Source of the DNA: Clostridia bacterium BRH_c25
GTDB lineage: Bacteria; Bacillota_A; Clostridia; Lutisporales; Lutisporaceae
Assembly: GCA_001515955.1 (NCBI GenBank)
Contig: LOES01000090.1
Coordinates: 1 to 22,958 of the forward strand
Length of the DNA: 22,958 bases
Direction: 5' to 3'
Shown: piece by piece, positions 736-20,866 of the stretch
How the letters are laid out: each line of letters opens with the position of its first letter
Position numbering within the stretch: the stretch's first letter is position 1
Position numbers and translations under genes: made by a program
Notes under the pieces: generated by a model
Databases searched by the model: none
Seen by the model: the letters and a program-made list of their open reading frames with translations, nothing else
Told to the model about the DNA's origin: nothing

Positions 736-1155
736 TCACAAAAGAGAGCTTTTTAAATCGTATATTAATTTAGACATGGTCTCTTCTGGATTCTTTTTTA
801 ATTCACATTCCCATAGAATTTTTACTTTCCACCCTAAGGAGATAAGTTTGTCAGTATTTATTTTATCTCTATTTATATTATTTCTTATTTTAGTCATCCA
901 ATAATCTGTCCTTGTTTTTGGGATATGGGAATAACTACAGACTCCATGGCCATGCCAGAAGCATCCATGTATAAAAATAACTGTGCTATATTTGGGGAGT
1001 ACAATATCAGGCTTTCCGGGAAACCTTTCATCATTTTTCCTAAAACGGAAACCTTCTTTGAAAAGCCATTTACGAGTGAATACCTCAATAGATGTATCTT
1101 TCCCACGTATTTTTGACATGTTTTTACTACGTCTTTCTTTCGAAATTTTATCCAT
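736..1155 (-). CDS. vsr: Very short patch repair (Vsr) mismatch endonuclease
   Basis: A 139-residue protein, the normal Vsr length. Vsr nicks 5' of the T in T:G mismatches that arise when 5-methylcytosine deaminates in a Dcm-type methylation site, starting very-short-patch repair. The visible family signature covers most of the protein. It includes MSKIRGKDTSIE (13-24), then GKPDIVLPKY with the catalytic Asp near residue 50, and HGCFWHGHGVC (63-73). TRTDYWMTKI and GWKVKILWECEL follow. C65, H70, C73 and C117 correspond to the structural zinc ligands of the E. coli enzyme. The ATG at 1155 has an AAGAG element 5' of it and starts 25 nt after the stop of the upstream nuclease gene, so the two are co-transcribed. 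The only cytosine methyltransferase visible is about 12 kb away in another operon, and it is the probable source of the lesions. Confidence 0.95.
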   Translation of the reverse strand: MDKISKERRSKNMSKIRGKDTSIEVFTRKWLFKEGFRFRKNDERFPGKPDIVLPKYSTVIFIHGCFWHGHGVCSYSHIPKTRTDYWMTKIRNNINRDKINTDKLISLGWKVKILWECELKKNPEETMSKLIYDLKSSLL

Positions 1156-1180
1156 ATGATCAACTCTTAATTAATATTAT

Positions 1181-2377
1181 TTATGGTAAAGGATAATTAC
1201 TTACGAGCCAATTTTCAAGATTATATTCATCAAAACTATTTCGTTTTAGTATGTCAATAATATCTCTACAACAAACAAGAAGTACCGGATGACCATCTTC
1301 TCTAATTTCCTGACAAGCTTGTGCGCCTATATAACTTGTAGTTACTAATACTCCAAATTGCCGGTGCTTTATTCTGGAAATCAGTCTTGATGTGCTTTTA
1401 ACCCCTACACCATTTCCGTATGGATCATATAACTTTGCTTCCAAAGCACAATCAATAAATAGTTTTTCGTTTTCAAACCCTATTTTATACCTGCCAAGAG
1501 CATCCCTTCCACCGTCTCTCCAGGGGCGTGTGAGGTCAAAATTATAAAAATTCGAATCCATCATTTTTATAATAGCTGCAGCACATGCCTCAAATAAAGT
1601 GGGACAGCTTTTAAAGTAATTATAAATAATCTCTGCCATTTTCATTCCAGCTCTATCATAAGGCAGCTGCTCCTCTTTTGTCCTGTAGCTTTTTATCTTA
1701 GGAGCTTTAAGTGGTATTAAACCGTTTATACCTTTTTCAATATAAATTTTCCATGCATCAGGAGCTAAATTTAACGCTTCAGGATCATTATGTTTAATAG
1801 CTGTAAGCCATTTTTTTGAAATCGGTTGACCAGCAGTATCAAGTATAGTGAAATGGGCTTCATAGTTTTGAAAACGTTCACTTCCTTTTGTTCTCCATAT
1901 TGCTATAAGTTGCTTATCTTTTTGCAGATATAAAGAGCCAGGAGCAGCAAGCCCAAGAAATCTTACAGATCTGCCTGGATCGGATTTTTGAAATATTAAG
2001 AATGGTGGAATCTTTTTCCTATCAATTGGATCTCCGCTTAGTAATTTAAATACGTTATTTAGAAGTAGATTTCCACCTCTTTTAGTAGAATGAAGATCAT
2101 GCCCGGGTGAACGGTTATCACCAAAATATCTGAATGTTCCGGTTTCTAAATCTAGACTATCTGGCCATTCTTGTTCTTCGCCACTTGTGTATAGAATTAC
2201 ATATGCTGGCCATTTTTCAGTGTTTTTATTTGCTACTCTAAAGCCCCCTTGATTTCCTATACCAGGTATCAATTTAGAAATAGGGTCATCAGATACATTC
2301 TTTGAGTCTCCACCTTTGTATATTGCATCTACAATCAGGGTTGCTGATTGTAGTTCATTAAATGAAAAAGTATTCAT
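1181..2377 (-). CDS. AspBHI/Mrr-like restriction endonuclease
   Basis: A 398-residue protein, close in size to AspBHI (MspJI family). The N-terminal half (about 40-150) resembles the AspBHI N-terminal recognition domain: GGFRVANK, then YVILYTSGEEQEWPDSLD, TGTFRYFGDNRSPG, TKRGGNLLL and VRFLGLAAPG. The C-terminal half carries an Mrr-type PD-(D/E)XK core. D292 lies in WRDGGRDALGRY and E313-x-K315 in CALEAKLY, followed by GVGVKSTSRLISRIKHRQFG and VLVTTSY. The ATG at 2377 has a strong AAGGTGAT ribosome binding site. It is the first gene of a minus-strand pair with vsr. MspJI-family members cut 5mC-containing DNA. Homologues encoded beside a cytosine methyltransferase may instead be conventional restriction enzymes, so the modification requirement is open here. 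Confidence 0.85.
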   Translation of the reverse strand: MNTFSFNELQSATLIVDAIYKGGDSKNVSDDPISKLIPGIGNQGGFRVANKNTEKWPAYVILYTSGEEQEWPDSLDLETGTFRYFGDNRSPGHDLHSTKRGGNLLLNNVFKLLSGDPIDRKKIPPFLIFQKSDPGRSVRFLGLAAPGSLYLQKDKQLIAIWRTKGSERFQNYEAHFTILDTAGQPISKKWLTAIKHNDPEALNLAPDAWKIYIEKGINGLIPLKAPKIKSYRTKEEQLPYDRAGMKMAEIIYNYFKSCPTLFEACAAAIIKMMDSNFYNFDLTRPWRDGGRDALGRYKIGFENEKLFIDCALEAKLYDPYGNGVGVKSTSRLISRIKHRQFGVLVTTSYIGAQACQEIREDGHPVLLVCCRDIIDILKRNSFDEYNLENWLVSNYPLP

Positions 2378-2454
2378 ATTACTATCACCTTTTTATATAT
2401 TTCCACAGCAATTCAAATAAACCTTTAAAAACTTATGGCAATTAACTAAATTCC

Positions 2455-2483
2455 TTTATACTTTTTAGTTTTTATTCTGACAA
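2455..2483 (-). promoter_or_regulatory. Sigma-A-type promoter for the nuclease-vsr unit
   Basis: Read on the minus strand, TTGTCA (2483-2478) and TATAAA (2460-2455) are separated by exactly 17 bp. Each hexamer has one mismatch to consensus. The start point would fall near 2447, leaving a leader of about 70 nt before the ATG at 2377. Confidence 0.65.
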
Positions 2484-2594
2484 ATCAATTGTAACTTAAA
2501 TGAGAACAATTTAGAAGCATTATTATCTACGCATAAAACTGAATAATTATTTACATATAAAGGTTTCAATATTTCTTTTGATTTCAAATTATTG

Positions 2595-2612
2595 TATAAT
2601 TAGGTTGACCTA
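2595..2612 (+). promoter_or_regulatory. Possible -10 box with overlapping operator for the helicase operon
   Basis: TATAAT at 2595-2600 is followed at once by the inverted repeat TAGGT-TG-ACCTA (2601-2612), which would cover the transcription start. That is a typical place for a repressor site. The -35 region is poor, so this is a suggestion from position and symmetry only. Confidence 0.3.
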
Positions 2613-2776
2613 TTTTTATTGAGAGGATTTACTTATACCAGGTTCTAATCAGTAAAAACCAAAGTTATTATTCCTTTATAAAATACCTAATGAGCAAACA
2701 GTTGAGAATAACCCATTTTAAGTATAAAAATAAAGTTATTATAAAGATTGAGGATGAATTAGTTGGGGGCTAAAGA

Positions 2777-4804
2777 ATGGACTACCTTGATTGGAATAGG
2801 CTTATTTCCCAGCATTTTTTCAATGAGGAGATGGCTGGACGTGATGTGATTCTATATGTGGACAGTTCTCTACTTGACAAATTAGGGGAAAGCTATGGTG
2901 TCGGTGTTGAAGATTTTATTGAAGCGGTTGTTGATGGACCAAGTCAGGCTTATGAAAAAGGATTCAGCAATAAGGCATTATGGGCATTAGGAAGAAGCAG
3001 GGTCGGTGGTAGTTGTAGAAATGGATATCCTTTATATATTGCTTACCTAGCTTTTTTTGTTTTTGCTGTAGATACTGAAGGAGATTTTTCTGACCATGCA
3101 TACTATCCGAGACTTAATACCCTTTTGGGAAAGTATGGAGAGAAAGTACAGCCAGGGTCTTTTATGGAATTGGATGAATTATGGTTTGACTTACAAATAT
3201 GGAGCATAGAAATAAAAAATGAAAAGCTTGGAAGGTTTACAACAAAACCAGTGGGATCGTGGCGGCATGTCGGCTTACCTATTTCACAAACATTGCTTAC
3301 TTCCGAGGAACGCGAAAAGCTACCCATATTCTTTATTCAAAATGGTTTTGATCCGATGTTATTACCAGATTATAACACGCTTTCAAAGACCATTTGTGAG
3401 TCTCCATATTTTAAGAACCGTACAAAAAAGTTAATTTTATCTGATGATAATGAGCATAAACATTTGATGGTTGCCTTGCTTGTACTTGTCCAGACTGCTC
3501 TTGTTGAATGGGATGGAGTTGCACCAGATATTGAAGACAGTGATATTCAACAAAATGGATGGATAAATTCAATGTTGAGGTTGTGTATAGAGCTAGACAA
3601 TTTTGCCATGCTGATAAAAGCGTCAGTGAGGTTTAAATCAAACTGTGAATTCCCTGATGATGAATTTGAGTTTATAAGACAAAGAGATGCGAGCTTATGG
3701 AAGAGTAAGGGCTCTATACGTAATTGGAGTAAAGCTCTTGTGGGTTATTACCAAAAAAATACTACTGATGCAACTTTACTATGCTGGAGCGAAGAGGAAG
3801 TTTTTATTGATAATCAACTAAGATGGAGGGTAAAGTTAAAGCCTTCACTAGTACGTATATTTATTTCTGGAAAATATGAAGGTTTGAACGGTTGGATAGA
3901 AATAAATAGGATCGAGCCTGGCATAGATTGTTTAATAGCGTGTCACGAATCTCATGCCGAGAGTATTACTAGTTGGGGAATGAATTCATGTGCCGGGTTT
4001 TCAAATTTAGATTATGAGGGAATACCTCCTCTATGGAGACTGTATATGGTGAAAAATATTAGAAAGCCTCACCCTGAAATAGATACACTAAAATTTCCGT
4101 TATCATATTCGATCCGGTTTGAAGGTGGTGTCAAGTCAGGTAAAGGGAACTCCTATTTTAGACTTGCTCCGCCAAGAATCTGTATTGATGGCATTCACGG
4201 TAATGAAACTGTTGCAGTAAATAGCGGGAAAATTACAAATCACCTGGATAACATCTGGCTTTTACCAGAAAATGTTGAAGTCAATTCCCCCCTTAAAATT
4301 GAGCTTTTCGATGGTAGTACTTGCGTGATGTCACGCATTTTAATACTTGAAGAGGGCTGTATGGGTTCTAGGTACAGTTCACCTATTAGAGACAAATATG
4401 GTGATATTACAACACAGCAGCAGATTTTTTCGGTATCAGGGGCAAATGTATTTGGCGTAAGCTTAAAATATATACCGGCATATAAAGAGCATCCACCAAC
4501 ATATATGTCACATAGGATTATTTTTATTGGTAATCATCCCGACCTTTACTGTGAATGGCCTGATGAAAATTTGCCAGATAACTGGGATGCAGTTTGGGCC
4601 ATTGCGAAAGTTAAGCGGGATAGATGGAAAGCATATTTTGTGGGTAGAGACCTATCCCAATGTACCTTAACCGAAATTAATAAATCGTGGCCTCTTTGGA
4701 AAAAGTGGAAGAAGGTATTAGTGAATTTGAGTATTGAACCTCCCAAAATCCAAAAACTTTATGATTTATGGAAGATATACAAAAAGGGGGCACAAAAACT
4801 ATGA
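2777..4804 (+). CDS. Uncharacterised 675-aa protein, first gene of the helicase operon
   Basis: I do not recognise a named family. The ATG at 2777 has GGGGG 7 nt upstream (2765-2769). The protein looks cytoplasmic and soluble, with no signal peptide or membrane segment. The N-terminus (about 6-40) has a compact pattern, NRLISQHFFNEEMAGRDVIL followed by YVDSSLLDKLG, that looks like a conserved domain start. The middle is mixed helical, the region from about 350 on appears beta-rich, and the last 80 residues hold a Trp-rich segment (NWDAVWAIAKVKRDRWKAYF). I see no nuclease, ATPase or methyltransferase motif. Its stop overlaps the next start by 4 nt (ATGA), so the two genes are translationally coupled. 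Context suggests a core structural, recognition or adaptor subunit for the giant helicase downstream. That role is inference only. Confidence 0.85.
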   Translation: MDYLDWNRLISQHFFNEEMAGRDVILYVDSSLLDKLGESYGVGVEDFIEAVVDGPSQAYEKGFSNKALWALGRSRVGGSCRNGYPLYIAYLAFFVFAVDTEGDFSDHAYYPRLNTLLGKYGEKVQPGSFMELDELWFDLQIWSIEIKNEKLGRFTTKPVGSWRHVGLPISQTLLTSEEREKLPIFFIQNGFDPMLLPDYNTLSKTICESPYFKNRTKKLILSDDNEHKHLMVALLVLVQTALVEWDGVAPDIEDSDIQQNGWINSMLRLCIELDNFAMLIKASVRFKSNCEFPDDEFEFIRQRDASLWKSKGSIRNWSKALVGYYQKNTTDATLLCWSEEEVFIDNQLRWRVKLKPSLVRIFISGKYEGLNGWIEINRIEPGIDCLIACHESHAESITSWGMNSCAGFSNLDYEGIPPLWRLYMVKNIRKPHPEIDTLKFPLSYSIRFEGGVKSGKGNSYFRLAPPRICIDGIHGNETVAVNSGKITNHLDNIWLLPENVEVNSPLKIELFDGSTCVMSRILILEEGCMGSRYSSPIRDKYGDITTQQQIFSVSGANVFGVSLKYIPAYKEHPPTYMSHRIIFIGNHPDLYCEWPDENLPDNWDAVWAIAKVKRDRWKAYFVGRDLSQCTLTEINKSWPLWKKWKKVLVNLSIEPPKIQKLYDLWKIYKKGAQKL

Positions 4805-5796
4805 GTCTTGATTTACTAAATGTCATTTCTACTAGAGGTGAAATAAGTATTGAAGAGTTTAGAAAAATTGTAAACGAACTCTGTTTAAAAGACGCAGATG
4901 ATAATGTTAGTTTAAAAGAATATTCAATACAGCTATTATATTACCTTGATGCTCTTGGCCATTGTGAATTTGATTTTGAAAGCCGTAAAGTTTTTGCCTG
5001 TCAACCAGTACTTGCATTACTACCAGGGACAGGAAGTCTTAATGTGGTACTTGCAGGTGCACGTGGCAGTCAGATGATGAAAAAGATTAAAGAAATAGAA
5101 GAAAACTATAAGGATTGCCTAAGTATACATATTATAAAACAGGAAAGGGAAGGAATTGTTTTGCCAGATACAGTGCTTTTTGAAGCATTAGATGAATCAG
5201 TATTTAATGAAATTGCAAGCATTTTAAGTGTTCAGTATGCAGGTAAAATACCTGTTGCATGGGTTATTGCTAATGGATCATGTGATATTAGAGAATCCTT
5301 TGACAGAACCGAAGAACATATGGGCAAAAGACTTAATTGGACATGCAGGAGATTTAATCCATATAAACTTTTTTTCCAGAAATATATTTCAGATGATATA
5401 CTTCCGCAGCTATTGGAATATACAAATCCAATATCCCAGAAAAAAATTTATTTATATATTAGTGATGATTACGTAAAAAAGGTTGAAAGAGATTGGGGAC
5501 GCTACCACCTACTAAACAAATTAGGTAAACATATACTGCTATATGATGATAAAAAGTATGTGCTGGCTGTGCCAAGTTATGTACCTTTGCCAAGACTATT
5601 AACACGGGCATTGACGCTCTGTTCCGGGCATGCAACATATAAGCAGTCTCTAATCTGTGATATGTATGGTTTGTATAAAGGTCTACCGGTAGATATATAC
5701 AAAGGGGTTACTGTTTCTATGGCTGAATTGGTTGCAAGTAAGGTTGGACAAGGTCTGAATATATTTACCGCAAATTTTGAGGAGGCATATGTATGA
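4801..5796 (+). CDS. Uncharacterised 331-aa protein with winged-helix-like N-terminus
   Basis: The start is set at the ATG at 4801, inside the ATGA overlap with the previous stop. An in-frame ATG at 4768 would place 11 extra residues inside the upstream gene and has a weaker ribosome binding site. Residues 1-70 (MSLDLLNVISTRGEISIEEF..., then QLLYYLDALGHCEFDFESRK) read like a winged-helix fold of three helices and a beta hairpin. After it comes a distinctive ALLPGTGSLNVVLAGARG segment (72-89). The rest alternates beta and helix with no catalytic motif that I recognise. The last codons overlap the helicase start by 4 nt (ATGA). Tight coupling to the helicase suggests a small DNA-binding or regulatory partner of the same complex (inference). 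Confidence 0.85.
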   Translation: MSLDLLNVISTRGEISIEEFRKIVNELCLKDADDNVSLKEYSIQLLYYLDALGHCEFDFESRKVFACQPVLALLPGTGSLNVVLAGARGSQMMKKIKEIEENYKDCLSIHIIKQEREGIVLPDTVLFEALDESVFNEIASILSVQYAGKIPVAWVIANGSCDIRESFDRTEEHMGKRLNWTCRRFNPYKLFFQKYISDDILPQLLEYTNPISQKKIYLYISDDYVKKVERDWGRYHLLNKLGKHILLYDDKKYVLAVPSYVPLPRLLTRALTLCSGHATYKQSLICDMYGLYKGLPVDIYKGVTVSMAELVASKVGQGLNIFTANFEEAYV

Positions 5797-8700
5797 TTGA
5801 TCCGATCAGATCTTATGAAGCTGTAAGAGATAATTTCATTCTTTATGTTAAAACTGCATTTGGTACGAGATTTCAATCAATAGAAGAAGAAAGAGAAAAA
5901 TTACTACATAAAGATAAGGTAATGAGTCAGGAACCTTGGATAGAACCGTTGCCTAAATATAAATCAAGCGGAAAGTCTATTGATGATGTGACGGGCAGTG
6001 ACCTACCTAGTCTTACATCAAATGAGGTGTTAACCTTTAAGGAGATGGTAAAATGCGGACTTTTTAGTCCGGAGTTTCCTCTTTATAGCCACCAGTATAA
6101 AATGTTAAGGAAAGCTTTAGAAGGATTTAATTGTGTTATTACTTCCGGTACAGGATCTGGTAAAACAGAATCTTTTCTTTTACCACTATTGGCACAATTA
6201 GCAAAGGAATATAGCAGCTGGAGTACTGCCGGACCGATGCACCCAAATTTGAATGATTGGTGGAAAAATAAACAGTGGAAAGATAGCTGCAAAACAAATG
6301 GAAGGCTTACAAAATCGTATAGAGTTTCCCAACGTCAGCATGAGACCCGGCCTGCTGCTGTAAGAGCCTTAATCTTATATCCGGTTAATGCATTAGTAGA
6401 AGATCAATTGACCCGTTTAAGAAAAGCCTTAGATTCTGATAAAGCAAGACAATGGTTTGCTGAAAACGGTAAGGGAAACCGTATATATTTAGGACGCTAT
6501 AATGGATCCACACCTGTACCAGGGCATGAGCTGAAAAGAAATGGGAATCCTGATACAAATAAGATTAATGGATTAGCAGAAAAGTTAAAGGAAATGGATG
6601 ATACATCACAAATTGCGAGAATGTATGCTAATGATCCAAACAATAATGACCCTGACAAACGTGATGTTATAGCCTTCTTTCCCCAAATGGACGGAGCTGA
6701 GATGAGATCAAGATGGGACATGCAAGACTCACCTCCGGATATTTTAATTACAAATTTCTCAATGCTAAGTATTATGCTTATGAGAGAAGCTGATAAAGAT
6801 ATATTTGAGAAGACAAGGTCGTGGATTGCTTGTGAGGATTTACCTGAATGTAAACGGGAAGAAGCAAAGAATACTAGGGTTTTTCACCTGATAGTTGATG
6901 AATTGCATCTTTACCGTGGAACAGCTGGAGCAGAGGTGGCTTATTTACTTAGGTTGCTACTTTTGCGTCTTGGATTGCATCCAGATCATCCACAGTTACG
7001 TATACTTGCATCCAGTGCTTCATTGGGGGCAGACGATCCTAAAAGTCATGAATTCTTAAGAGATTTTTTTGGAAGCAATACTTTTGAAATTATTGAAGGT
7101 AGTCTTGCTCCTATGCCTGAAGTAAAAGAAAATAACTATTTACCATATAATCCTTTTAGAATAATTAGTGAAAATAGTAGCAATCTTACAGATGATGTTT
7201 TTTATCAAGTACTTCAAAATATGGGGGTAGAATATCATGGAAGTGAGCCATGTAAAGCATTACTCCAAACTTTAGAATCGCCGGAATTTAAAGTTGATGC
7301 GCATATGGTATGTGCATGCAATGTAGAAGGTAAATTAAGAGCTGTATCGTTAACTGACTTTGGTAAAAAAATATTTGGAGATATTCCTTTAGACGAAATT
7401 CATAAAGCTACTCAGGGCTTATTAATTTTAAGATCACTATATGATGAGATGGGAATGAGGACTTCTCTTCCATCTTTTAGAATGCATTTCTTTTTCCGGA
7501 ATATTGAAGGGCTTTGGGCATCAACAAAACCCTTATCAGGATCAACAGATGGACGTCCAGTTGGTCCACTTTATGCGTCTTCGAAAATAATAGGTGATAA
7601 AAATATTGGTGATGAAAAATACCGGGTTTTAGAACTGCTATATTGCGAGCATTGTGGGACAGTGTTTTTTGGAGGTAGTAGACTAAATAATCTGGAAAAT
7701 GGTATTACCGAAATGCTGGCTACAGACCCGGAAATTGAGGGGATTCCGGATAGAAGTCCTGCAAGGTTTGTAGAAAGAAGAACATATAATGAATTTGCTG
7801 TTTTCTGGCCGCAAGGGGAGCAGGAATTCAAGACAGATGCATCTAGATGGTATCAACCAAGGATTGATGCTCCTGACCAAAGTAGCTCTAATCATTTTTC
7901 AGATCAAGCTAGATGGGAAGAAGCCTGCCTTAATAACAGGACGGGTTACATGGTTTTAACTCATGAGAAATACGATGAGGATCCAGACCAATGGGTTAAG
8001 GGTTATTTATTTTCAATTATACCTGATAATGATGAAGATTTAGAGAATCATAGGGCTTTACCTTGTTTATGTCCTTCATGTGCAGCTGATCATACGCGGC
8101 GTTTAAGGAAATCTCCTATAAGGGGGTTCCGTACAGGTTTTACGAGGGTGAGTCAGATATTTACAAAAGAGTTATTCTACCAGCTTCCAGAAATACCTCA
8201 AAGAAAGCTTGTAGTTTTCTCCGATAGCCGTGAAGATGCTGCTCAAATTTCAAATGGTGTAGAAAGAAGCCACTATTCGGATCTAGTGCGGGATATAGCA
8301 ATTGATGAGCTGCAAATTCAAGCGTTGGGAGAGCCAAGCGTACTTGATGATATCGAAAACAACAGAAACTATAGTGATTTTGCACAAAGATACCTTGAGA
8401 TTAATCCTAATGCAGCGGATGAGATGCAGAATTTATTAGGGCTAACTAAAAGTTCAATCCCTCCTGGCTTGCCTCCTGCATTTCAACAAGTATTGGAGGC
8501 TCAGGTAAAAGAAGCAAATGAAAAGCTTGATAGTATACGAAAAAGAGGGAGAACTAGAATTGTGTCAGTGGCTACAATACTCCCCCCTGTTGATAACCTA
8601 TCTTCTTGTGGAAGATTAATTGAAAGATTAATAAAACTAGGTGTAAATCCTTCAGGAAATGAAATTAGGTTACAAAATTTTAAATGGGATGATGTATGGC

Positions 8701-11537: not shown

Positions 11538-11542
11538 TATAT

Positions 11543-12628
11543 TTGAACCGGCATACAGTTCCAAATCTGACATTGAAACAATTGAATAGAATATCGCCTA
11601 GTAAATACTTTTCCTTACAGGCTTGTATCCTTCGTGAAGTTTGGTCAGCTGATAATCAGACTAAAGGATTATTACCGGTTGCACCAATTATAAAAATAGG
11701 AACAGTTGCCCATAAAGTATTAGAATTAGCTGCAAAAGGTTTAGTTAAGACAGAGGAAGATGCCGTAAAGCAATGGGATATTGGAGTAAAAGCAACTGAA
11801 GAGGAGATGAACTCCAGTTGGTTAGAAAAGCATTTACTACCTTTGTCAAAAAAGGCTAGGTACTATGAGGTTAAGCGCCAGCAATGTTTAATAATGGTAC
11901 GTAGTATATTAGGAAGAGGTAGTGGTAAAGGAATAATACGGCCTTCCTCTATAAAAGTCGAGGTATGGGTTGAATCAAGTAATGGAAAAGTTGCTGGGAA
12001 AATCGATGTTGTGCGGCAGACCTCAGAGGGTGTTCAAATAGTTGATTATAAAACTGGAGCAGTTCTTGAAATAAATGCTGATGCTGATGAGATAAAGCTG
12101 GAATATCAACTGCAGCTAAAAATATATGCAGCATTATATAATGAGAAATATGGTAATTGGCCAGAACATTTAGTTATTTTAACTTTGGGGCATAAGGAGT
12201 ATGAGATCCCGTTTACTAAAAAAGAATGTAAAAATTTGCTTGAAAAAGCATCAGCTAGGCTTGATGAGGTTAATGCAATGATAGCAAGTGCTCATAGCGT
12301 GAAAGAACTTGCTAATCCAACCCCAGATAATTGCAGGTATTGCACGTTTAGACCAGCTTGTGAAGTATATTGGACAACAAGAGATTTGACAGGTCTCTGG
12401 CCTATAGATTGTTATGGAAGAGTCATTGACTTAAAAGTGTTGAATAACGGAAGTTTGAGAGTAACAATTAATAATGGATCTGACAATGTAGTAATTCGTG
12501 GGTTAGATCCGAAAAGGCATGAGGGTTTTCAATATAATGCTAGTGAGGTATTCTTTTATAATTTAAATGTAGATTCAGTTTCTGGATATTATACAGAAAG
12601 TCTATTAACAACATGCTATTGTAAATAG
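11543..12628 (+). CDS. Cas4/AddB-like PD-(D/E)XK nuclease with Fe-S-type cysteine cluster
   Basis: About 361 residues. I chose the TTG at 11543 because GAGGTG (11531-11536) lies 6 nt upstream. An in-frame GTG at 11534 would sit inside that site. The fold is a RecB-family nuclease (PDDEXK_1 type): GTVAHKVLE (H57), E140, GKIDVV (D155), IVDYKTG (D168-x-K170) and the QxxxY-like EYQLQLKIYAALY (189 on). Four cysteines are spaced as in Cas4 and AddB Fe-S nucleases: C28 in LQAC, then C264-x2-C267-x5-C273 (CRYCTFRPAC). All catalytic residues look intact. Residues 285-361 are beta-rich and could be an OB-like nucleic-acid-binding tail (inference). The gene follows the helicase directly and ends the four-gene operon. 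It is probably the exonuclease or DNA-end-processing partner of the helicase, an analogue of helicase-nuclease pairs such as AddAB. Confidence 0.85.
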   Translation: MNRHTVPNLTLKQLNRISPSKYFSLQACILREVWSADNQTKGLLPVAPIIKIGTVAHKVLELAAKGLVKTEEDAVKQWDIGVKATEEEMNSSWLEKHLLPLSKKARYYEVKRQQCLIMVRSILGRGSGKGIIRPSSIKVEVWVESSNGKVAGKIDVVRQTSEGVQIVDYKTGAVLEINADADEIKLEYQLQLKIYAALYNEKYGNWPEHLVILTLGHKEYEIPFTKKECKNLLEKASARLDEVNAMIASAHSVKELANPTPDNCRYCTFRPACEVYWTTRDLTGLWPIDCYGRVIDLKVLNNGSLRVTINNGSDNVVIRGLDPKRHEGFQYNASEVFFYNLNVDSVSGYYTESLLTTCYCK

Positions 12629-12837: not shown

Positions 12838-13008
12838 ATGGAATATATCACGGCAAAAGAAGTAGCGGTTAAATGGGGGATATCCCAGCGAAGAGTTCAA
12901 ACTCTATGTGAACAGGGACGGGTAAAGGGTGCTGTTAGGCTAGGCTGGGCTTGGGCAATTCCAAGAGAATCAGATAAACCTAAAGATGCCCGGAAAAAGA
13001 AAATGTAA
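12838..13008 (+). CDS. Small 56-aa helix-turn-helix DNA-binding protein (MerR/excisionase-like)
   Basis: The ATG at 12838 has GAGG 7 nt upstream, and the frame runs 56 codons to TAA. The protein MEYITAKEVAVKWGISQRRV followed by QTLCEQGRVKGAVRLG is a typical short HTH of the MerR/excisionase (HTH_17) kind. It has the 'tAkEvA..wgiS.RrVq.lc..GrI.GA.r.G..W.Ip' pattern and a lysine-rich tail. Such proteins bind DNA as regulators or architectural factors. It sits 61 nt before the methyltransferase gene in the same direction and probably in the same transcript. It is therefore a candidate controller of the restriction-modification operon, acting like C proteins do although from a different fold family. 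An alternative role as a recombination directionality factor is possible, but no integrase is nearby. Confidence 0.75.
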   Translation: MEYITAKEVAVKWGISQRRVQTLCEQGRVKGAVRLGWAWAIPRESDKPKDARKKKM

Positions 13009-13069
13009 CCTTTTAATTTCTATTTCTATAATTAACTGGCAATAATATTAAGAATGATTGAGGAGATAT

Positions 13070-14206
13070 ATGGCGATTTCACTTTTTTCTTTTTTTTCTG
13101 GTACAGGATTATTGGATCTCGGTTTTGAGGATAATGATTTAGATTATGATATAGTTTTTGTAAATGAATATAAGCAGGCATTTTTAGATGCATACATGTT
13201 TTCTCGTCAAAATCATAATATTGGGCTACCTAGATACGGATATCATTGTTGTAATATTAATGATTTTTTAAACATCAATCTAGCTGGTATACTGCAAGGC
13301 TATTTGCAGGAACAACGTAACCTGAATAATATTACCGGATTTATTGGTGGACCTCCATGTCCTGATTTTTCAGTAGGTGGTAAGAATCTTGGTAGGAATG
13401 GTGAAAATGGTATACTAGCACACAGCTATGTTAATCTGATTATTGCACAGCGGCCCGATTTTTTTATTTTTGAGAATGTCCGTGGGCTAGTAAAAACCGC
13501 AAAACATAGGGAGTATTTTGATGAACTAAAACTTGCTTTACGTAATGCTGGATATGTTATTTCTGATATTCTTCTAAACTCATTGAGTTTTGGGGTTCCC
13601 CAAGACAGAGATAGAGTTATAATGATAGGGGTTTTAAACAACCAGGGACTGGATTTACCTATAAATGATGATGGAGTTTTGGATTTCCCTTGGCTTCAAT
13701 ATGCTATGGCCGGCGCCGATGCTGATGTTATTAAACAATTACCTTGGCCGACAGAACAACCATATGAAGAAAATAGCCGAAGAGATTTTCAATATCATGT
13801 TCAAGAGAACCTTACAGTACAATATTGGTTTACCAAAAATAATGTTAGAAATCATCCAAATAGTGGAGATATTTTTCAGGTAAGGGCGGGAAGAACAAAG
13901 ATGTTGCAGATTCCAGAGGGAGATACAAGCCGTAAATCATTTAAAAGGCTACACAGGTGGAGATATTCTCCGACTGCTGCATATGGAAATAATGAAGTTC
14001 ATTTACATCCGTATGAGACAAGACGGTTAAGTGTATCTGAGGCTATGGCGATACAATCGCTACCAGCATGGTTTTGTCTACCAGAACACATGACATTAAC
14101 TGATAAATTTAAAGTAATTGGTAATGGTGTACCATATCTTATGGCTTTGGGGATTGCACGGGCAGTAAATGAATTTCTAAATCAAATATTTGATGAGGTG
14201 AACTAA
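13070..14206 (+). CDS. DNA (cytosine-5) methyltransferase, Dcm-like
   Basis: About 378 residues. It transfers methyl groups from S-adenosylmethionine to C5 of cytosine. I place the start at the ATG at 13070, just after GAGGAG (13060-13065). An upstream in-frame TTG at 13058 lies partly within that site. All major C5-methylase motifs are visible: I FSFFSGTGLLDLGFE, IV GGPPCPDFS with catalytic C97, VI FENVRGL (E135), VIII GVPQDRDRVIMIG, IX RRLSVSEAMAIQSLP and X KVIGNGVPYLMALGIA. The segment from about 190 to 300 is the target-recognition domain, so the site cannot be read from sequence. Motif IV is PCP rather than the commoner PCQ. Two bases separate its stop from the next start. It should protect host DNA and is the probable reason a vsr gene is kept at the left end of the island. 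Confidence 0.95.
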   Translation: MAISLFSFFSGTGLLDLGFEDNDLDYDIVFVNEYKQAFLDAYMFSRQNHNIGLPRYGYHCCNINDFLNINLAGILQGYLQEQRNLNNITGFIGGPPCPDFSVGGKNLGRNGENGILAHSYVNLIIAQRPDFFIFENVRGLVKTAKHREYFDELKLALRNAGYVISDILLNSLSFGVPQDRDRVIMIGVLNNQGLDLPINDDGVLDFPWLQYAMAGADADVIKQLPWPTEQPYEENSRRDFQYHVQENLTVQYWFTKNNVRNHPNSGDIFQVRAGRTKMLQIPEGDTSRKSFKRLHRWRYSPTAAYGNNEVHLHPYETRRLSVSEAMAIQSLPAWFCLPEHMTLTDKFKVIGNGVPYLMALGIARAVNEFLNQIFDEVN

Positions 14207-14208
14207 AA

Positions 14209-16845
14209 ATGGGTGAAAAGAGAATTATTATTGATCCGAGAATAATACAGCATCTTGGGCGAGATCTTATCACTTCTCCAGATGTTGCAATTATTGAGCT
14301 TATTAAAAACTCAATTGATGCAAAATCAAAAATAGTTAACATTCATTTATTTGAACGTTTTGATAAAGTTACTGAATGCAAGAATTTTATAACGGCTCTT
14401 CCAAAGGAAGTTTTAAATTTTATTCCTGAGAAGTTAAGAAAATCAACTGTTTTAATTGTTGAAGATAAAGGTTTCGGAATGTCAACAACCCAATTGGAAG
14501 ATGGTTTCTTAAAAATAGGAACGGATATAAAATCGAATAAAACAGGTGATGATATTATTCTTGGTGAAAAAGGAATAGGTAGATTAGCTGCTCAACGTCT
14601 TGGAAATGCACTTATTGTTGAGACTGCATCAGAAAGTGAAGGTCTTATATCGTTAACATACTTAGATTGGAATGAAATTATAAAGGGAAAAGATATTGTT
14701 CCATATGATCAGATATCTGGGACACATAATAGCTATACGAGATTATGGATATTTAATGTTAACTTCGAAGAGTTATTAGAATACCCTGTGCAATTAAGTC
14801 TAGATTCTACAAGTGAGATAACTGATATTAATCGGGATTTACAATCAGCTATGAATTTTTTGGTTTCACCGTTTAATGCTACAATGCCATCAGCGATAAT
14901 TAATATGTATTTTAATGATAAGCCTCTGGAGACTCGCTTTCCGGGTGAAATGCTAGAATTATCAGAGAGCACACATTACTTTTCTTTTATCAACAGCAAT
15001 AGTGTTATCTCATTAAATTATGGATTGAAATTACAACCATGGTATATTGAACGTATTCATCGCGCTTTAGTAAAGGCTGATGCTTTTACGCGCTTAAAAA
15101 AGCCTCATAATTTTTATCAAGAATTATTAAACGAAAACACTTCTAGAATTGACCAAGCCTTAACTTTTACTATAAACCAAGAAGAATTATGCGAACGAAT
15201 AGCATCATTTTATGAGGATGTTTATCCAAATTTAGTAAATAAAAATAATAAAGAAACTATTGAAAAATACTTTTATGAAGAGGCCTCAAAAATGGTAAGT
15301 AGGTTATGTGAAATTGCGCCTATTTCTGGTGAAATATATAGTTTTAAGCAGAATGCAGCAATTGGAGATAATATTATTATTGAATCAGTTAAGCAAAGAA
15401 ACAAAAACGATAAAATCCAAAATATTGATTTGAAAAAGCTGAAGCAATTCCTTGATAATTATAATGGAATTAAGTTATATAGAGGGAGCTACCGAATTGG
15501 TTTTTTAGGGAATAAAGAAAGTGACTGGATTAAACTACAGCAATATAGAACTAAAGGACAACAATGGTTTAGATTTGATTTGGGGAACACGGTCGGTTAT
15601 GTTTCACTTAATGATCCTCACCAAGAAAAAATTAAAGAGATAAGCTCACGTTTGGATATAAGTCAGAACTATGTTTCAGAAGCTTTTAAAAACTTAGTTT
15701 ATATCGTATTTAATAGATTGTTTTATGAACTAAATCAGAAAGCAAATGGTATTGTAAAAGTCATTCTGGAAGAGAAAGGACTTCTTGGTGAACCTTTAAC
15801 AAAACGCGTAAAGAAAAATGTTGACTTGGTTCAACAAATGATTAAGAAAAACAAAAAAATGATGAACACCATTCAAGAAGTTTCACGAACGCTGGAGAAA
15901 AAGGTCGTGATAGATGGTGCTTCCGCAAGTATGCCCAAAATAACATATGAGTTTGTCACAAAAGTTATTGATGATATAAATGAGCACTTTAAAGAAGATC
16001 AAGATACGCATGCCGAAGCTGCAAATTTATTAGTAGAAGCGGATGAACAGTTGAAAATAATTGAAGTAGAATCTTACAATAATTATAAATTGATGGCAAA
16101 TGGTTTAATTACAGAAACAATAACGCATGAATTACATTCATTAAGTACTACTAATATTGACAATCAAGTCGATGGACATTTTGAATCTTTAAAGGATTAT
16201 TTCTCTGAAAACAAGGAGGCAAAAGTATACAATTCACATGTATATCCGATAAAAAATAGTTATAATGTAATTTCAAATAAAATACTCCAAATAGGAGATA
16301 TGTATTCGTTCCTTGAAAAAACGTTTATTAAAAAAGGAACATATGATGAATTTATCGAACAGAATATAAAAGAGCTTGCCGAACAAGTATATGTTAATTT
16401 AATGAAGGCATCAAAATCAAGTAAAATAAACCTGGTGTGCGAAACAAGTGATTTAACTTGGTTTGTTCCTAAAGGAGTTTTGGTTCATGTCTTTTATAAT
16501 TTATTTAGTAATTCAAGATATTGGATTGATATACGTCGAAAAAGAGCAGAAAAAGATTCTGCTTATACCCATAGTGGAGATGATCAAATCATAGTAGAAC
16601 CGCTGGGGACCGATGGATTAATTGTATCCGATACTGGTACAGGGGTTACCACAAATATGCAAGATATACTTTTTGAGCCACTTCAATCTGGAAAGCCATA
16701 TAATGAAGGTCGCGGTATGGGTTTATATATTGTAAAGAAGCTGATGAATTCATTTAATGGGGACATTATCTTATTGCCAGATCTAAATGAGTTTGGTAAT
16801 CGCTATAGATTTTTACTCACGACAGATAAAGCGGAGGAAATGTAA
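14209..16845 (+). CDS. Dual GHKL ATPase: MORC/Hsp90-like N-terminus plus histidine-kinase-like C-terminus
   Basis: An 878-residue protein. The ATG at 14209 follows GAGGTG. The N-terminal GHKL module has an N box ELIKNSIDA (E30, N34, D37), a G1 box VEDKGFGMS (D86) and a G2 box GEKGIGRLA (119-127). This matches the Hsp90/MutL/MORC type, and prokaryotic paraMORC ATPases of this type are known in restriction-modification loci. The middle (about 500-660) is charged and coiled-coil-like. A sequence ITETITHELHSLST with H640-E641-L642 resembles a histidine-kinase H box. The last 120 residues are a second ATPase module: N box FYNLFSNSRYW (N764), G1 VSDTGTG (D808), F box near ILFEPLQSGK and G2 GRGMGLYIVKK (834-844). 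No membrane segment is present, so the protein is cytosolic. It overlaps the next gene by 1 nt (TAATG). It may remodel DNA or the nuclease complex, with possible kinase-like signalling. Confidence 0.88.
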   Translation: MGEKRIIIDPRIIQHLGRDLITSPDVAIIELIKNSIDAKSKIVNIHLFERFDKVTECKNFITALPKEVLNFIPEKLRKSTVLIVEDKGFGMSTTQLEDGFLKIGTDIKSNKTGDDIILGEKGIGRLAAQRLGNALIVETASESEGLISLTYLDWNEIIKGKDIVPYDQISGTHNSYTRLWIFNVNFEELLEYPVQLSLDSTSEITDINRDLQSAMNFLVSPFNATMPSAIINMYFNDKPLETRFPGEMLELSESTHYFSFINSNSVISLNYGLKLQPWYIERIHRALVKADAFTRLKKPHNFYQELLNENTSRIDQALTFTINQEELCERIASFYEDVYPNLVNKNNKETIEKYFYEEASKMVSRLCEIAPISGEIYSFKQNAAIGDNIIIESVKQRNKNDKIQNIDLKKLKQFLDNYNGIKLYRGSYRIGFLGNKESDWIKLQQYRTKGQQWFRFDLGNTVGYVSLNDPHQEKIKEISSRLDISQNYVSEAFKNLVYIVFNRLFYELNQKANGIVKVILEEKGLLGEPLTKRVKKNVDLVQQMIKKNKKMMNTIQEVSRTLEKKVVIDGASASMPKITYEFVTKVIDDINEHFKEDQDTHAEAANLLVEADEQLKIIEVESYNNYKLMANGLITETITHELHSLSTTNIDNQVDGHFESLKDYFSENKEAKVYNSHVYPIKNSYNVISNKILQIGDMYSFLEKTFIKKGTYDEFIEQNIKELAEQVYVNLMKASKSSKINLVCETSDLTWFVPKGVLVHVFYNLFSNSRYWIDIRRKRAEKDSAYTHSGDDQIIVEPLGTDGLIVSDTGTGVTTNMQDILFEPLQSGKPYNEGRGMGLYIVKKLMNSFNGDIILLPDLNEFGNRYRFLLTTDKAEEM

Positions 16846-18908
16846 TGCAGCAAATTGATTATAGAAAGTTATTTATTAATGTTGATTGTGCTATGATAGT
16901 TTTTCTTGAAGATGACTTTTCTCTTGCAGATACAGAAGTAGATAAATCAAAGTTTCTTTATTCTATTTCGAGGATGGATGTCGAGAGCAGAAAAGACTTT
17001 GTTTCGGAACTGGAAAAAAATCATTCTGTTTTTGCATTATCTTTAAAAAGCTATTCCAATTGTATGGATAAATTATTTCCCCTAATAGAATGCTGGAATG
17101 AAGAAGTCATAAGGGATGATATTGAATCCGCTATGGATATTATAAAAATACGGGACCCAGCACAGTATGATAGCCTCAGTGGTTTATATAATGCTATTGA
17201 ACTGCCCAATGTGGATCAATTGGCTAAGTTATTATTAAAATATGGGCTTTGCATCAATATTCCGCCTTGTTATCAAAGAATATTTGATGAGTATCTACTA
17301 TCGGAGAACAGATGGAAACCGTTTAGAATATATGCAAACTTTGATGCTGAAAATAGCAGGTCATTTAAGTGCGATTTGCAAGAGTTCTATAAAAATACAA
17401 TCAATGAATTTACTTGCCTCTGCTGCATAATTGATAATGAACTTTCAGGGGAAAAAAGGGCGAAAAATATCATTGATGAAATAAGAAGCTTTAACACAGA
17501 TAAGCGAAATAGTATTATTGGAGCCATAGTCACTTCTCATGAAAAAACTGAAAATATAGATGAACATGTTTTCCTTGAATATGTTAATAAGTCTTTAGCT
17601 CAAAATAATTTACAATCTGCAATACTTAAAAGTACATATAATTATGCGATAAGCAAGTTAAAAGATGAATTGGTGAAAGGACTTTTTGATTCTTTCTCAA
17701 AAGCTACAATCAACAGGAATATTGCATTCTACCTATCGCAAATGGCTGTATATGAAGGAGTGGCAAATTACCAAATTATTAACACTTGGATTAGTACCAT
17801 GTGTGATTTTGAATTATCTAAAAGTAATGTAATTCTTTATATCGTGAGATTAACTAATCTAATTAATCAGGTTGAAATTGAAAATTATGAAATTTCTGAT
17901 GATTTAAATATGCTTAATACTTTTGAAGCATTTGATTATAATGTAAATAAGTTTTATCAGCCTCCGGCAGCAGGTGATGTTCTCATAGATAATGATGGCA
18001 ATGTATACATTTTGGTTGGACAAGACTGTGACATCATGATGAGCGAAACCAGAAAAAGGAGGAATGCTATTTCTGAATTGATACCGGCACAAATCGTATC
18101 ACAGACTGAAATGTTTAAATTGAAGAATAATCTTAATTATATGATGATTAACAACTTTAGAAAAAGTCCTGAAGATACTCCAAGTTGCATAAAGATAGAT
18201 TATACAAAAAGAGTTTACTTGGAGAATGAGTTGATTAATTTGTGCACATATAATCCGGATGGAAAATGTTGTATTAGTCTCGATACGGTGTTGCCAGATG
18301 ATAGAGCTAAGATTATGATGCCATATCTTGTTGAATATTATGGTGAGATGCAGAAGTACTTTAATTCGATAAAAACATTAAAATCTCAAGCAGGAGAAGC
18401 TTTTGATATATTCTTAGATAATACTTATGCCCCAAGACTTATATCCGTACATAAGTATGAGGAGGAATCTGCAAATAAATTATCTTATCCGTTGCGAAGA
18501 ATTTGTAGATTAACAGAAACCTATATACTTTACTTATACAAGCTATATCTTGAGTATAGAGGGAGGCAGCCGTATAACACTATCAATTTAGCTCGGTGCC
18601 AGACTCTTGATATACCTATAACAGATTCAGCGATTTCTGGAGAAATGAGCATTCAGGTTATTCTTTCAGGAGATAGGAATACAAATTCCAAGCCTGCAAA
18701 ATTACCCTGGGAAATATCAAGAAGTGAAGTACTGAGGATGTTGTCAAAATTTAATGTGGATTCAATGCCTACAGATAAAAAAGATTACATAGCTTTAGAG
18801 GCTGAGGAAACTAATATTCGCTTAGAGAATGGACAGGCATTAAAAGTAACTAAAAAAAGTAAACCAGCGGTAAAATTAGAAATAATACGATCCTACATAG
18901 GCTACTGA
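16845..18908 (+). CDS. 687-aa protein with internal response-regulator receiver-like domain
   Basis: The ATG at 16845 is coupled to the previous stop (TAATG), with GGAGG about 7 nt upstream inside the ATPase gene. The region of about 158-260 resembles a CheY-type receiver: acidic residues after a beta strand (RIYANFDAEN, D167/E169), CCIIDNELSGE with D197 at the phospho-acceptor position, IIGAIVTSHE with T230/S231, and FLEYVNKS with K249. The rest is not assigned. A C-terminal beta-rich segment includes GDVLIDNDGNVYILVGQDCD (about residues 370-390). There is no DNA-binding output domain that I recognise and no nuclease motif. Pairing with an ATPase that ends in a histidine-kinase-like module suggests the two communicate, perhaps by phosphotransfer, but a purely structural pseudo-receiver is equally possible. 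Confidence 0.8.
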   Translation: MQQIDYRKLFINVDCAMIVFLEDDFSLADTEVDKSKFLYSISRMDVESRKDFVSELEKNHSVFALSLKSYSNCMDKLFPLIECWNEEVIRDDIESAMDIIKIRDPAQYDSLSGLYNAIELPNVDQLAKLLLKYGLCINIPPCYQRIFDEYLLSENRWKPFRIYANFDAENSRSFKCDLQEFYKNTINEFTCLCCIIDNELSGEKRAKNIIDEIRSFNTDKRNSIIGAIVTSHEKTENIDEHVFLEYVNKSLAQNNLQSAILKSTYNYAISKLKDELVKGLFDSFSKATINRNIAFYLSQMAVYEGVANYQIINTWISTMCDFELSKSNVILYIVRLTNLINQVEIENYEISDDLNMLNTFEAFDYNVNKFYQPPAAGDVLIDNDGNVYILVGQDCDIMMSETRKRRNAISELIPAQIVSQTEMFKLKNNLNYMMINNFRKSPEDTPSCIKIDYTKRVYLENELINLCTYNPDGKCCISLDTVLPDDRAKIMMPYLVEYYGEMQKYFNSIKTLKSQAGEAFDIFLDNTYAPRLISVHKYEEESANKLSYPLRRICRLTETYILYLYKLYLEYRGRQPYNTINLARCQTLDIPITDSAISGEMSIQVILSGDRNTNSKPAKLPWEISRSEVLRMLSKFNVDSMPTDKKDYIALEAEETNIRLENGQALKVTKKSKPAVKLEIIRSYIGY

Positions 18909-18941
18909 GTAAGTGGTATGAGATATTACAAAAATTGAAAT

Positions 18942-18958
18942 TCTAGGATTTTCCTAGA
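18942..18958. repeat. Perfect inverted repeat TCTAGGA-TTT-TCCTAGA
   Basis: Seven-base arms with a 3-nt centre lie in the 78-nt gap between the receiver-like gene and the next gene. No T-run follows, so it is not a normal terminator. It could be a protein-binding site or a small processing hairpin. A weaker look-alike (TAGGA-N5-TCCTA) lies at 12660-12674 in front of the methyltransferase operon. Confidence 0.45.
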
Positions 18959-18986
18959 TTGATTTACATATGTAAGGGGCATTATT

Positions 18987-20663
18987 ATGGAAAACATAAG
19001 TATTATTTCAAAAATTAAAAATCATGCTTTAAATAGAGTGAAAAAATATTTCTCAGGCTTATCTATAAGGGAACAGCAAGTATTTATCAATCATGTAATC
19101 CGCTATTATGATCAAACTTACGATCTGTGGCTTAGCCAATATAATGGAAATAATAATGAGATTCTCGATTACTTAACTTTTTCGTTTCCAGTAGTATTTC
19201 GTTATCTTTATAAAGATTATAGTAGCACTGAAGGTTGTCCACTAATCCCTTCTTCCTTAATGTCCATGCAAACCATAAGGGATTTTTTGGATATTTGTTA
19301 TAAAGCCGGACTCATGGAAAACTATGAGGAACTACTCCGGACTGGAGTATTGCAGTATGAAATTAAGGGTGAAAATAATGTATATTTATCGTATACAAAT
19401 AAATACTTTTCAATTGAAAGAGTAGAGAAAGTTCAAAGTGTAAAGTATTCTCATGCAATGATGAGATCCATGCAAAGTGAATATCATAGGGGTTTAACTC
19501 AGCTCATACGGATAATCAATAAAATGGAAAAATTGGTATATACATGGAATGACGATTTTATAGGTTACGAGGCAGATCCAGAAGTAGACCTTTTTTTCAT
19601 CCGTAATGCACAGTTAGATTTTGCTCAAGCCACAGAATGGGATGGATTTTCTGAAACTTCAAAGTTTGGGGATATAGAGTATCATTTTTTTTTAAGTGCT
19701 CTAATAGCTATTGAATCAATAAATATAAAACACTCACAATTTGTTCAAGTAGCAATGAAAAAAGACCCTAATTTAGAAAGTCATAATATTTTGCCCTGTA
19801 TTGAAGATTATATAACCGTGGTTGATACCATCTCTTATATTTTGGGTACTTCCCAAGAAACAGCAGAAACAATATTAAATACATTCTTGTTTGATGAAGA
19901 AAAGAGAGAATATTATAGTCATATAAGTGCTCCAAATCCACCTTTTATTAGAATATCATCAACACAATTGTTGCGTTCGTTCAGCGGCTGTATTTATAGG
20001 CCAATAGAATTTATGCTAGCTGAGCTAAAGAGGTTATATCCAGAAGATTGGGACCGAAACACAAAAGAAAGAGAAAGAATGTTTAGAGATGAGCTATATA
20101 AGTATTTTACTGATGACCGCTTTATTACATTCAATAGAAGTATAGATATTGTTGAAAACGGAAAAAGAATTACTGATATTGATGCATGCATTATTGATAA
20201 AGAAACTAATGATATAGCATTCATTCAACTTAAATGGCAGGATTCTATTTATGAATCAGTGCGATCTCTAGTAAGTAAAAGAAAAAACTATGTAGAGAAA
20301 GCAACAAAGTGGGTTCAAGATATTGAACAATGGATTAATATGACTTCAGAAAGACGTATAGCTGATTTTCTGCAATTAAGTCCACAATTTGTTTGTAAGG
20401 ATAAGATTAAGAGTTTTGTAATTGGTAGACATAACGGAAATTACTCTGGAGACGAAAGGCCATGTAGTAATGCTGCCTGGTGCCAATGGTATAATTTAAC
20501 TAAGCTAATAGGAGTATCCCAAAATGATATTACTATACCAAAACTTTTTGACTTAATTCAAAAGGAGAGTCCTTATAATCAACAAAATAGTATTAGTCCA
20601 TCAGAAATAAAATATGGAAATTATTGTATCCAGTTAGTTGCTCCCCCATATAATTATGCTTAA
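18987..20663 (+). CDS. 558-aa protein with probable PD-(D/E)XK (QxK variant) nuclease domain
   Basis: The ATG at 18987 has AAGGGG about 8 nt upstream. Residues 1-330 are mainly helical and unassigned. The region of about 360-450 looks like a restriction-endonuclease core: a helix with E369, then SIDIVENGKRITDIDACIID with D397/D399, then IAFIQLKW giving Q414-x-K416, followed by an amphipathic helix (SVRSLVSKRKNYVEKATKWV). A D...(Q/E)xK pattern after an 'I-x-D-I-D' strand is common in Mrr-like and other R-M nucleases. The gap of 78 nt from the previous gene lacks a terminator, so it is probably the last gene of the methyltransferase operon. It is the best candidate for the restriction effector of this operon. 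The nuclease call rests on motif pattern only. Confidence 0.75.
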   Translation: MENISIISKIKNHALNRVKKYFSGLSIREQQVFINHVIRYYDQTYDLWLSQYNGNNNEILDYLTFSFPVVFRYLYKDYSSTEGCPLIPSSLMSMQTIRDFLDICYKAGLMENYEELLRTGVLQYEIKGENNVYLSYTNKYFSIERVEKVQSVKYSHAMMRSMQSEYHRGLTQLIRIINKMEKLVYTWNDDFIGYEADPEVDLFFIRNAQLDFAQATEWDGFSETSKFGDIEYHFFLSALIAIESINIKHSQFVQVAMKKDPNLESHNILPCIEDYITVVDTISYILGTSQETAETILNTFLFDEEKREYYSHISAPNPPFIRISSTQLLRSFSGCIYRPIEFMLAELKRLYPEDWDRNTKERERMFRDELYKYFTDDRFITFNRSIDIVENGKRITDIDACIIDKETNDIAFIQLKWQDSIYESVRSLVSKRKNYVEKATKWVQDIEQWINMTSERRIADFLQLSPQFVCKDKIKSFVIGRHNGNYSGDERPCSNAAWCQWYNLTKLIGVSQNDITIPKLFDLIQKESPYNQQNSISPSEIKYGNYCIQLVAPPYNYA

Positions 20664-20845: not shown

Positions 20846-20866
20846 GCGAGAAAGGAGGAATTTTAA

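What the first reader, a model, noticed from the sequence alone, without database searches (positions are those of the whole stretch)
736..20663. Roughly 20-kb multi-operon defence island that may be one composite system
Ten defence-type genes lie together without unrelated genes between them: Vsr, an AspBHI-like nuclease, two unknowns, a DUF1998 giant helicase, a Cas4-like nuclease, an HTH protein (the candidate regulator), a C5 methyltransferase, a dual GHKL ATPase, a receiver-like protein and a QxK nuclease. Vsr at the far left makes functional sense only with the methyltransferase 12 kb to the right, which argues that the block is kept as a unit. Parts recall paraMORC R-M loci, Druantia (DruE, and a C5 methylase in type II) and DISARM (DUF1998 plus a C5 methylase), but the whole set does not match a named system I can identify.
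Basis: partly seen in the sequence, partly recalled or inferred. Interest (0 to 1): 0.8.

Follow-up and report, generated by a model that had tools for sequence, protein, structure and literature searches.

The report
Methylase-linked Druantia IV defence island
The stretch is a stack of known anti-virus modules, probably on a plasmid, whose core is a Druantia type IV helicase system lying next to a DNA-marking enzyme and its repair partner, a pairing that recurs beside other copies of this system and suggests it tells self from non-self DNA by methylation.

Summary
The eleven listed genes are real and contiguous, but they are not one new system. Genes 3-6 (druF-druL-druE-druK) match Druantia type IV. 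Genes 8-10 are a C5-methyltransferase / dual-GHKL / receiver-like cassette, followed by a QxK nuclease, resembling published paraMORC / HEF_HK restriction loci. The cassette is 88% identical in DNA to copies without Druantia, with the match ending within 25 bp of its borders, and only 2 of 18 surveyed GHKL loci have Druantia nearby: the block is modular. Of 7 assessable loci found through DruL alone, 6 have a C5 methyltransferase directly behind druK, three with Vsr and one with an AspBHI-like gene, although type IV was described as lacking that methylase. The window and its closest Druantia relative share druFLEK and Vsr by descent but carry different methylases. Best reading: Druantia IV is methylation-keyed with an exchangeable methylase, here supplied by a transposed cassette that may serve two restriction arms. 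Activity is untested. New variant of a known kind.

The parts
736..1155 (-). Vsr-type mismatch endonuclease
   Evidence: TIGR00632 7.3e-43 above cut-off; PDB 1cw0 2.3e-32; 65% identical to the Vsr beside Druantia IV in G010
1181..2377 (-). AspBHI-like (MspJI family) modification-dependent endonuclease; 25 bp from vsr, same strand
   Evidence: PF18062 and Mrr_cat; PDB 4oc8 AspBHI 6e-95; PADLOC mREase_II 4.7e-146
2777..4804 (+). druF
   Evidence: PADLOC DruF4 PDLC00054 1.5e-233 over 675 aa
4768..5796 (+). druL, overlaps druF
   Evidence: PADLOC DruL4 PDLC00056 3.6e-103
5793..11537 (+). druE, YprA-like giant helicase with MZB Zn-binding domain
   Evidence: PADLOC DruE2 1902.6 bits, DruE4 1864.7 bits; DEAD, Helicase_C, MZB
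11534..12628 (+). druK, PD-(D/E)xK nuclease, Cas4-like
   Evidence: PADLOC DruK 1.3e-29; PDDEXK_1 2e-19
12838..13008 (+). 56-aa HTH protein, excisionase-like; role unclear
   Evidence: HTH_17 25.4 bits, below cut-off; PHROG excisionase 2.4e-6
13058..14206 (+). C5 cytosine methyltransferase; PPC, ENV and GNGVP stretches present
   Evidence: PF00145 1.1e-46; PADLOC MTase_II 1.5e-139, DruM2 1.4e-126; motifs (their catalytic meaning is recalled)
14209..16845 (+). dual GHKL ATPase, histidine-kinase-like (paraMORC / HEF_HK-type architecture), invariant H640 before the second ATPase domain
   Evidence: PF13589, PF02518; invariant columns
16845..18908 (+). receiver-like protein: REC-like domain (D197, K249 invariant) plus MazF/CcdB-like barrel at 373-576
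18987..20663 (+). QxK-type PD-(D/E)xK nuclease, candidate restriction effector of the cassette
13059..18884 (+). mobile cassette methyltransferase-GHKL-receiver, 88% DNA identity to L001 and L004
2..418 (-). flank: transposase piece cut by window edge
   Evidence: PHROG transposase
20867..22577 (+). flank: ParA and ParB, plasmid-type partition genes
   Evidence: ParB 77% to a Cohnella herbarum plasmid; 73% DNA identity at 20830-22577

Best explanation
The island is a Druantia type IV system (DruF, DruL, DruE, DruK) that works as a methylation-keyed, R-M-like defence. Here a transposed methyltransferase-GHKL-receiver cassette supplies the methylase. Steps: (1) the C5 methyltransferase marks host DNA at its own site [family and motifs shown; activity and site inferred]; (2) Vsr repairs the T:G mismatches that deamination of that 5mC creates [family shown; role from Vsr biology, PMC8011034 section 8]; (3) the DruE helicase with DruF/DruL and the DruK nuclease unwinds and cuts invading DNA that lacks the mark [families shown; dependence on the mark inferred from gene linkage]; (4) the GHKL kinase-like ATPase, the receiver protein and the QxK nuclease form a second restriction arm, probably switched by ATP and a His-to-Asp phosphorelay, that shares the same methylase [conserved residues shown; signalling inferred]; (5) the AspBHI-like enzyme cuts DNA carrying foreign 5mC or 5hmC, so the resident methylase must not create its target [inferred]. 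The block was put together from modules, not kept as one unit.
For: Druantia IV identity. Linkage: of 7 assessable loci found through DruL alone (G759, G775, G821, G869, G924, G1025, G1551), 6 have a same-strand C5 methylase overlapping druK or within 100 bp of it. It is the genome's only PF00145 gene in all 5 of these six that were scanned (G759, G775, G821, G869, G1025; G1551 was not scanned). The best PADLOC model is DruM2 in 5 of 6, second best in G821. Vsr lies beside Druantia IV in 5 of 8 genomes scanned. Replacement: window and G010 are DruE sisters (64%, 100/99) and share Vsr (65%), but the window methylase groups with the L001/L004 cassettes (80-82%) and G010's with G821's (95/86). 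Sharing: in G013 the genome's only C5 methylase sits in a GHKL-receiver-methylase-Vsr-QxK cassette convergent with druFLEK. [quoted passage not shown] DruF and DruL are one polypeptide in 6 of 10 DruL loci checked, which supports one complex.
Confidence: 0.6

Rival explanations
1. A plain defence island: Druantia IV, an independent GHKL-type R-M cassette and a Vsr/AspBHI pair lie together only because defence genes collect in the same mobile region; the methylase serves its own cassette alone and Druantia IV is methylation-blind.
For: The methylase cassette is a unit of its own, 88% identical to copies without Druantia; 16 of 18 GHKL loci have no Druantia in the fetched flanks; GC steps along the window; the two cyanobacterial Druantia IV loci have no methylase match.
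Against: Loci found through DruL without reference to methylases have one directly behind druK in 6 of 7, and it is the only C5 methylase in the 5 of those genomes scanned; a rough chance estimate is under 1e-15, assuming independence and random placement; different methylase lineages fill the place.
Confidence: 0.27
2. One coherent ten- or eleven-gene composite system maintained as a unit.
For: G013 carries most of the same families together in another phylum.
Against: Order and orientation differ in G013; the modules have different histories; cassette borders; AspBHI N-domain in 1 of 10 Druantia genomes and 0 of 18 GHKL genomes; HTH found in no other held locus.
Confidence: 0.06
3. The stand-alone Vsr is not a repair enzyme but a nuclease subunit of Druantia IV, replacing the inactivated Vsr-like C-terminal domain reported for type I/II DruE.
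For: Vsr tracks DruE (window-G010 65% and 64%) better than it tracks the methylase (53%); inactive Vsr-like DruE C-termini are reported for types I and II in PMC12458937 (passages).
Against: In the six other loci where Vsr lies beside Druantia (G010, G013, G775, G869, G1025, Hymenobacter plasmid) a C5 methylase is there too; the window protein passes the Vsr cut-off; druK already supplies a nuclease.
Confidence: 0.07

Closest known systems
Druantia type IV (PADLOC; PMC8565338, section 14 and passages read)
   Same: druE, druF, druL (and PADLOC's DruK) in one overlapping operon; no DruG hit
   Different: Type IV was described as lacking DruM; in 6 of 7 assessable loci found by DruL a C5 methylase that hits DruM2 models follows druK, in three of them with Vsr
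Druantia type II
   Same: the DruE2 model scores slightly higher than DruE4; a methylase hitting DruM2 is near
   Different: no DruG hit; DruL and DruK instead
HEF_HK / Response_reg_2 two-component-like R-M loci (PMC8011034; abstract, section 5 part 1, section 8 and passages read)
   Same: HATPase_c_3 + HATPase_c protein next to a receiver-like protein and a C5 methylase; Vsr often near; [quoted passage not shown]
   Different: PF19191 and PF19192 do not match the window proteins; hhalign does not link the receiver-like family to the G452 Response_reg_2 protein
paraMORC R-M systems (PMC2292703; passages read)
   Same: GHKL ATPase with C5 methylase, Vsr and endonucleases
   Different: fused histidine-kinase-like second ATPase and a separate receiver-like protein
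Upx (PDB 9wuf)
   Different: no PADLOC hit at E 1 and no PDB sequence match at E 1; Upx chain has 1212 residues
Eggerthella lenta group B defence island (PMC13060105; passages read)
   Same: C5 methylase, large helicase and Mrr-like enzyme together, called reminiscent of Druantia
   Different: not compared at sequence level here

Membership tests
Druantia type IV | DruE, DruF and DruL together | tested here: met
Druantia type IV | no DruG | tested here: met
   no DruG model among the hits shown for the ten proteins (only the methylase's list was cut, at 25 of 56)
Druantia type IV | no DruM (as described in PMC8565338) | tested here: inconclusive
   a methylase hitting DruM2 at 1.4e-126 lies 430 bp past druK but belongs to another mobile cassette; other DruL loci have a DruM2-like gene in place
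Druantia type II | DruG present | tested here: not met
HEF_HK family | match to PF19191 | tested here: not met
   no match at E 10, while the same model matches the G452 protein; also 0 of 12 genomes, where nothing rang in the controls
HEF_HK family | HATPase_c_3 N-terminal and HATPase_c C-terminal with a His stretch between | tested here: met
Response_reg_2 family | match to PF19192 | tested here: not met
   no match at E 10; hhalign to a true member probability 0.3
Response_reg_2 family | receiver fold with acidic pair, Asp and Lys | tested here: met
   [not shown]
paraMORC | GHKL+S5 ATPase in an R-M locus | tested here: inconclusive
   GHKL and R-M context met; no paraMORC model was available
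DISARM | DrmB and DrmC with the DrmA-type helicase | tested here: not met
   only DrmA hits to the helicase (best 7.2e-10) and DrmMII hits to the methylase (2.9e-31); no DrmB or DrmC hit shown
Hma | HmaA helicase and HmaC ATPase with an m5C methylase | tested here: not met
   no Hma model among the 22 hits of the helicase or the 0 hits of the GHKL protein; the methylase list was cut at 25 of 56
Vsr | TIGR00632 above cut-off | tested here: met
MspJI/AspBHI family | AspBHI-type N-domain plus Mrr_cat | tested here: met
MspJI/AspBHI family | cleavage dependent on 5mC | not testable with these tools
   biochemistry needed

The most novel reading that the evidence does not exclude
Druantia type IV is a true restriction-modification system in which the self mark is a C5 methylation supplied by an exchangeable methylase slot. 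In some islands, this one included, two unrelated restriction machines, a helicase-nuclease complex and a two-component-like GHKL/receiver/QxK device, share one methylase, with Vsr guarding the mark and an AspBHI-like enzyme policing foreign methylation.
Probability: 0.4. Interest if true: 0.75.

Novelty: new variant of a known kind. Interest (0 to 1): 0.55.

Why it matters
How Druantia type IV spares host DNA was not stated in anything I saw, and the type was described by the absence of the methylase. If a swappable C5 methylase and Vsr are regular parts, the system gains a concrete self/non-self rule that one methylase mutant can test, and its border with type II needs redrawing. Because several methylase lineages fill the place, surveys that cluster neighbours by family could have missed it (inference). 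The window also puts two restriction machines beside one mark.

Tried and rejected

Rows dropped before the 6 of 7 count: G1513 (4.2-kb contig, no flank), G865 (37-residue DruL fragment with stops), G1682 (E 5.6e-4, no Druantia gene recognised on its 5-kb contig), and G013 and G010 (found through the GHKL query). G924 counts as negative: its contig gives 1.9 and 2.2 kb of flank, and its only C5 methylase belongs to an EcoRII locus on another contig. The 9 of 12 count adds G010, G013, the Hymenobacter plasmid and the two cyanobacterial plasmids; these plasmids are the top three of 65 plasmid records with a DruE match, and the other 62, all weaker, were not examined. The class draw overlaps the phylum draw. 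L044 and L045 have no DruK match by blastp at 1e-5, but L044 has a PDDEXK_1 protein about 4 kb past druE. The gaps between druK and the methylase rest on mechanically chosen start codons. That Upx is a single-gene defence system is recalled, as are the catalytic meaning of the methylase motifs and the label IS256. Not-in-print statements rest on searches of open-licence PMC papers only; supplements were not readable.
Full report
WHAT IS THERE. The window holds eleven contiguous open reading frames from 736 to 20663, flanked on the left by a transposase piece and on the right by ParA and ParB. Two genes run left (AspBHI-like, then Vsr, 25 bp apart); nine run right. druF, druL, druE and druK overlap one another; a 56-aa HTH protein follows, then the methylase, GHKL, receiver-like and QxK genes. 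GC is 0.35-0.42 in the Druantia part, 0.31-0.35 from the methylase to QxK and 0.48 at 21-22 kb. ParB is 77% identical to that of a Cohnella herbarum plasmid, and 20830-22577 aligns to it at 73% DNA identity, so the island is probably plasmid-borne.

DRUANTIA TYPE IV. The helicase scores slightly better with a DruE2 model (1902.6 bits) than with DruE4 (1864.7). No DruG model was hit. PMC8565338 (section 14 read) describes type IV as having DruE, DruF and DruL and lacking DruM and DruG.

THE METHYLASE CASSETTE. A scan of genome contigs with a GHKL alignment gave 18 loci. The receiver-like protein follows GHKL in 18 of 18 (one a partial match on a 3.9-kb contig), a C5 methylase is present in 17 of 18 (the miss is that contig), Druantia genes in 2 (L010 Geosporobacter, L013 Bacteroidetes MAG), a QxK homologue in 2 (L005, L013), a Vsr match in 5 (one of half length), AspBHI in none (genome-wide PF18062 0 of 18; DruL4 in 2 of 18 genomes). 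Of ten loci whose gene behind the receiver gene was scanned, one has HNH_2 and two DUF5677; the others have regulators, other genes or no family. The closest relatives, L001 and L004, match the window at 88.3 and 88.6% over 5.84 kb that starts at the methylase start and stops 24 bp before the end of the receiver gene; neither locus has a match to Druantia, QxK or Vsr. The cassette therefore moves as a three-gene unit. In five loci (L001, L002, L004, L005, L015) members of one ORF family lie upstream of the methylase; the L001 member is a serine recombinase.

HISTORY. DruE of the window and G010 are sisters (64%, support 100/99) and their Vsr proteins are 65% identical, but their methylases are not sisters: the window's joins L001/L004 (80-82%), G010's joins G821's. 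G775/G869 share DruE, methylase and Vsr at 61-68%, and G1025/G1551 share DruE and methylase at 70-75%, so the linked set can also be inherited together. G013's methylase falls in the distant GHKL clade; G759's and the Hymenobacter plasmid's are far from all, on long branches whose place is unsure. So different methylases have come to sit beside Druantia IV more than once. In G013 the genome's only C5 methylase lies in a GHKL-receiver-methylase-Vsr-QxK-HNH cassette convergent with Druantia IV: both machines, if methylation-keyed, must use it.

MECHANISM. I infer that the methylase provides the self mark for Druantia IV and for the GHKL/receiver/QxK arm, that Vsr protects methylated sites from mutation, and that the AspBHI-like enzyme cuts other modified DNA. 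AspBHI cuts at YS-m5C-NS (PMC3874153 Table 4, passage), so the resident methylase should avoid that context; the same review says each modification-dependent system is compatible with some resident methylases, and that the MspJI gene lies beside a methylase gene thought inactive. None of this was measured here. Passages on Druantia III (PMC13192584) describe loading on ssDNA-rich intermediates, which could be the entry step here with methylation deciding upstream, or could mean that methylation is irrelevant.

IN PRINT. Of the 3 papers that hold Druantia, methyltransferase and Vsr, the passages I saw in PMC12458937 and PMC11090510 do not describe a Vsr or C5 methylase gene with type IV; the third, a preprint version of PMC11090510, was not opened. 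PMC13060105 (passages) describes an Eggerthella island with a C5 methylase, a helicase and an Mrr-like enzyme that fits no subtype. Supplements could not be read, so earlier notice cannot be excluded.

VERDICT. The composite-system idea is partly right: the block is modular and its parts are known, but the link between Druantia IV, a C5 methylase and Vsr is recurrent, against the published description, and worth a direct test.

Noticed in passing
L020, L024, L025, L027, L047, L048 (DruL hits in G013, G1025, G821, G775, G1513, G1551): DruF and DruL matches lie in one open frame in these 6 of 10 DruL loci checked, so the two appear fused.
   Followed up: yes
[not shown]
   Followed up: partly
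L031 5487-13844: A C5 methylase, HEF_HK protein, Response_reg_2 protein and QxK homologue form a compact locus; QxK looks like an effector of this published two-component-like system.
   Followed up: partly
[not shown]
   Followed up: partly
L037 2383-11071: Beside the G821 Druantia methylase lie an overlapping 367-aa ORF and a 2012-aa ORF, both without a Pfam match.
   Followed up: partly
window 20830-22577: ParA/ParB resemble those of a Cohnella herbarum plasmid (73% DNA identity), so the island is probably on a plasmid of a Bacillota host.
   Followed up: partly
L042 8725-9492: A PDDEXK_4 nuclease gene follows the Druantia-linked methylase in G775.
   Followed up: no
L001, L002, L004, L005, L015 upstream of the methylase: Five loci share an ORF family upstream of the cassette; the L001 member is a serine recombinase (Resolvase + Recombinase), which may explain how the cassette spreads.
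   Followed up: partly
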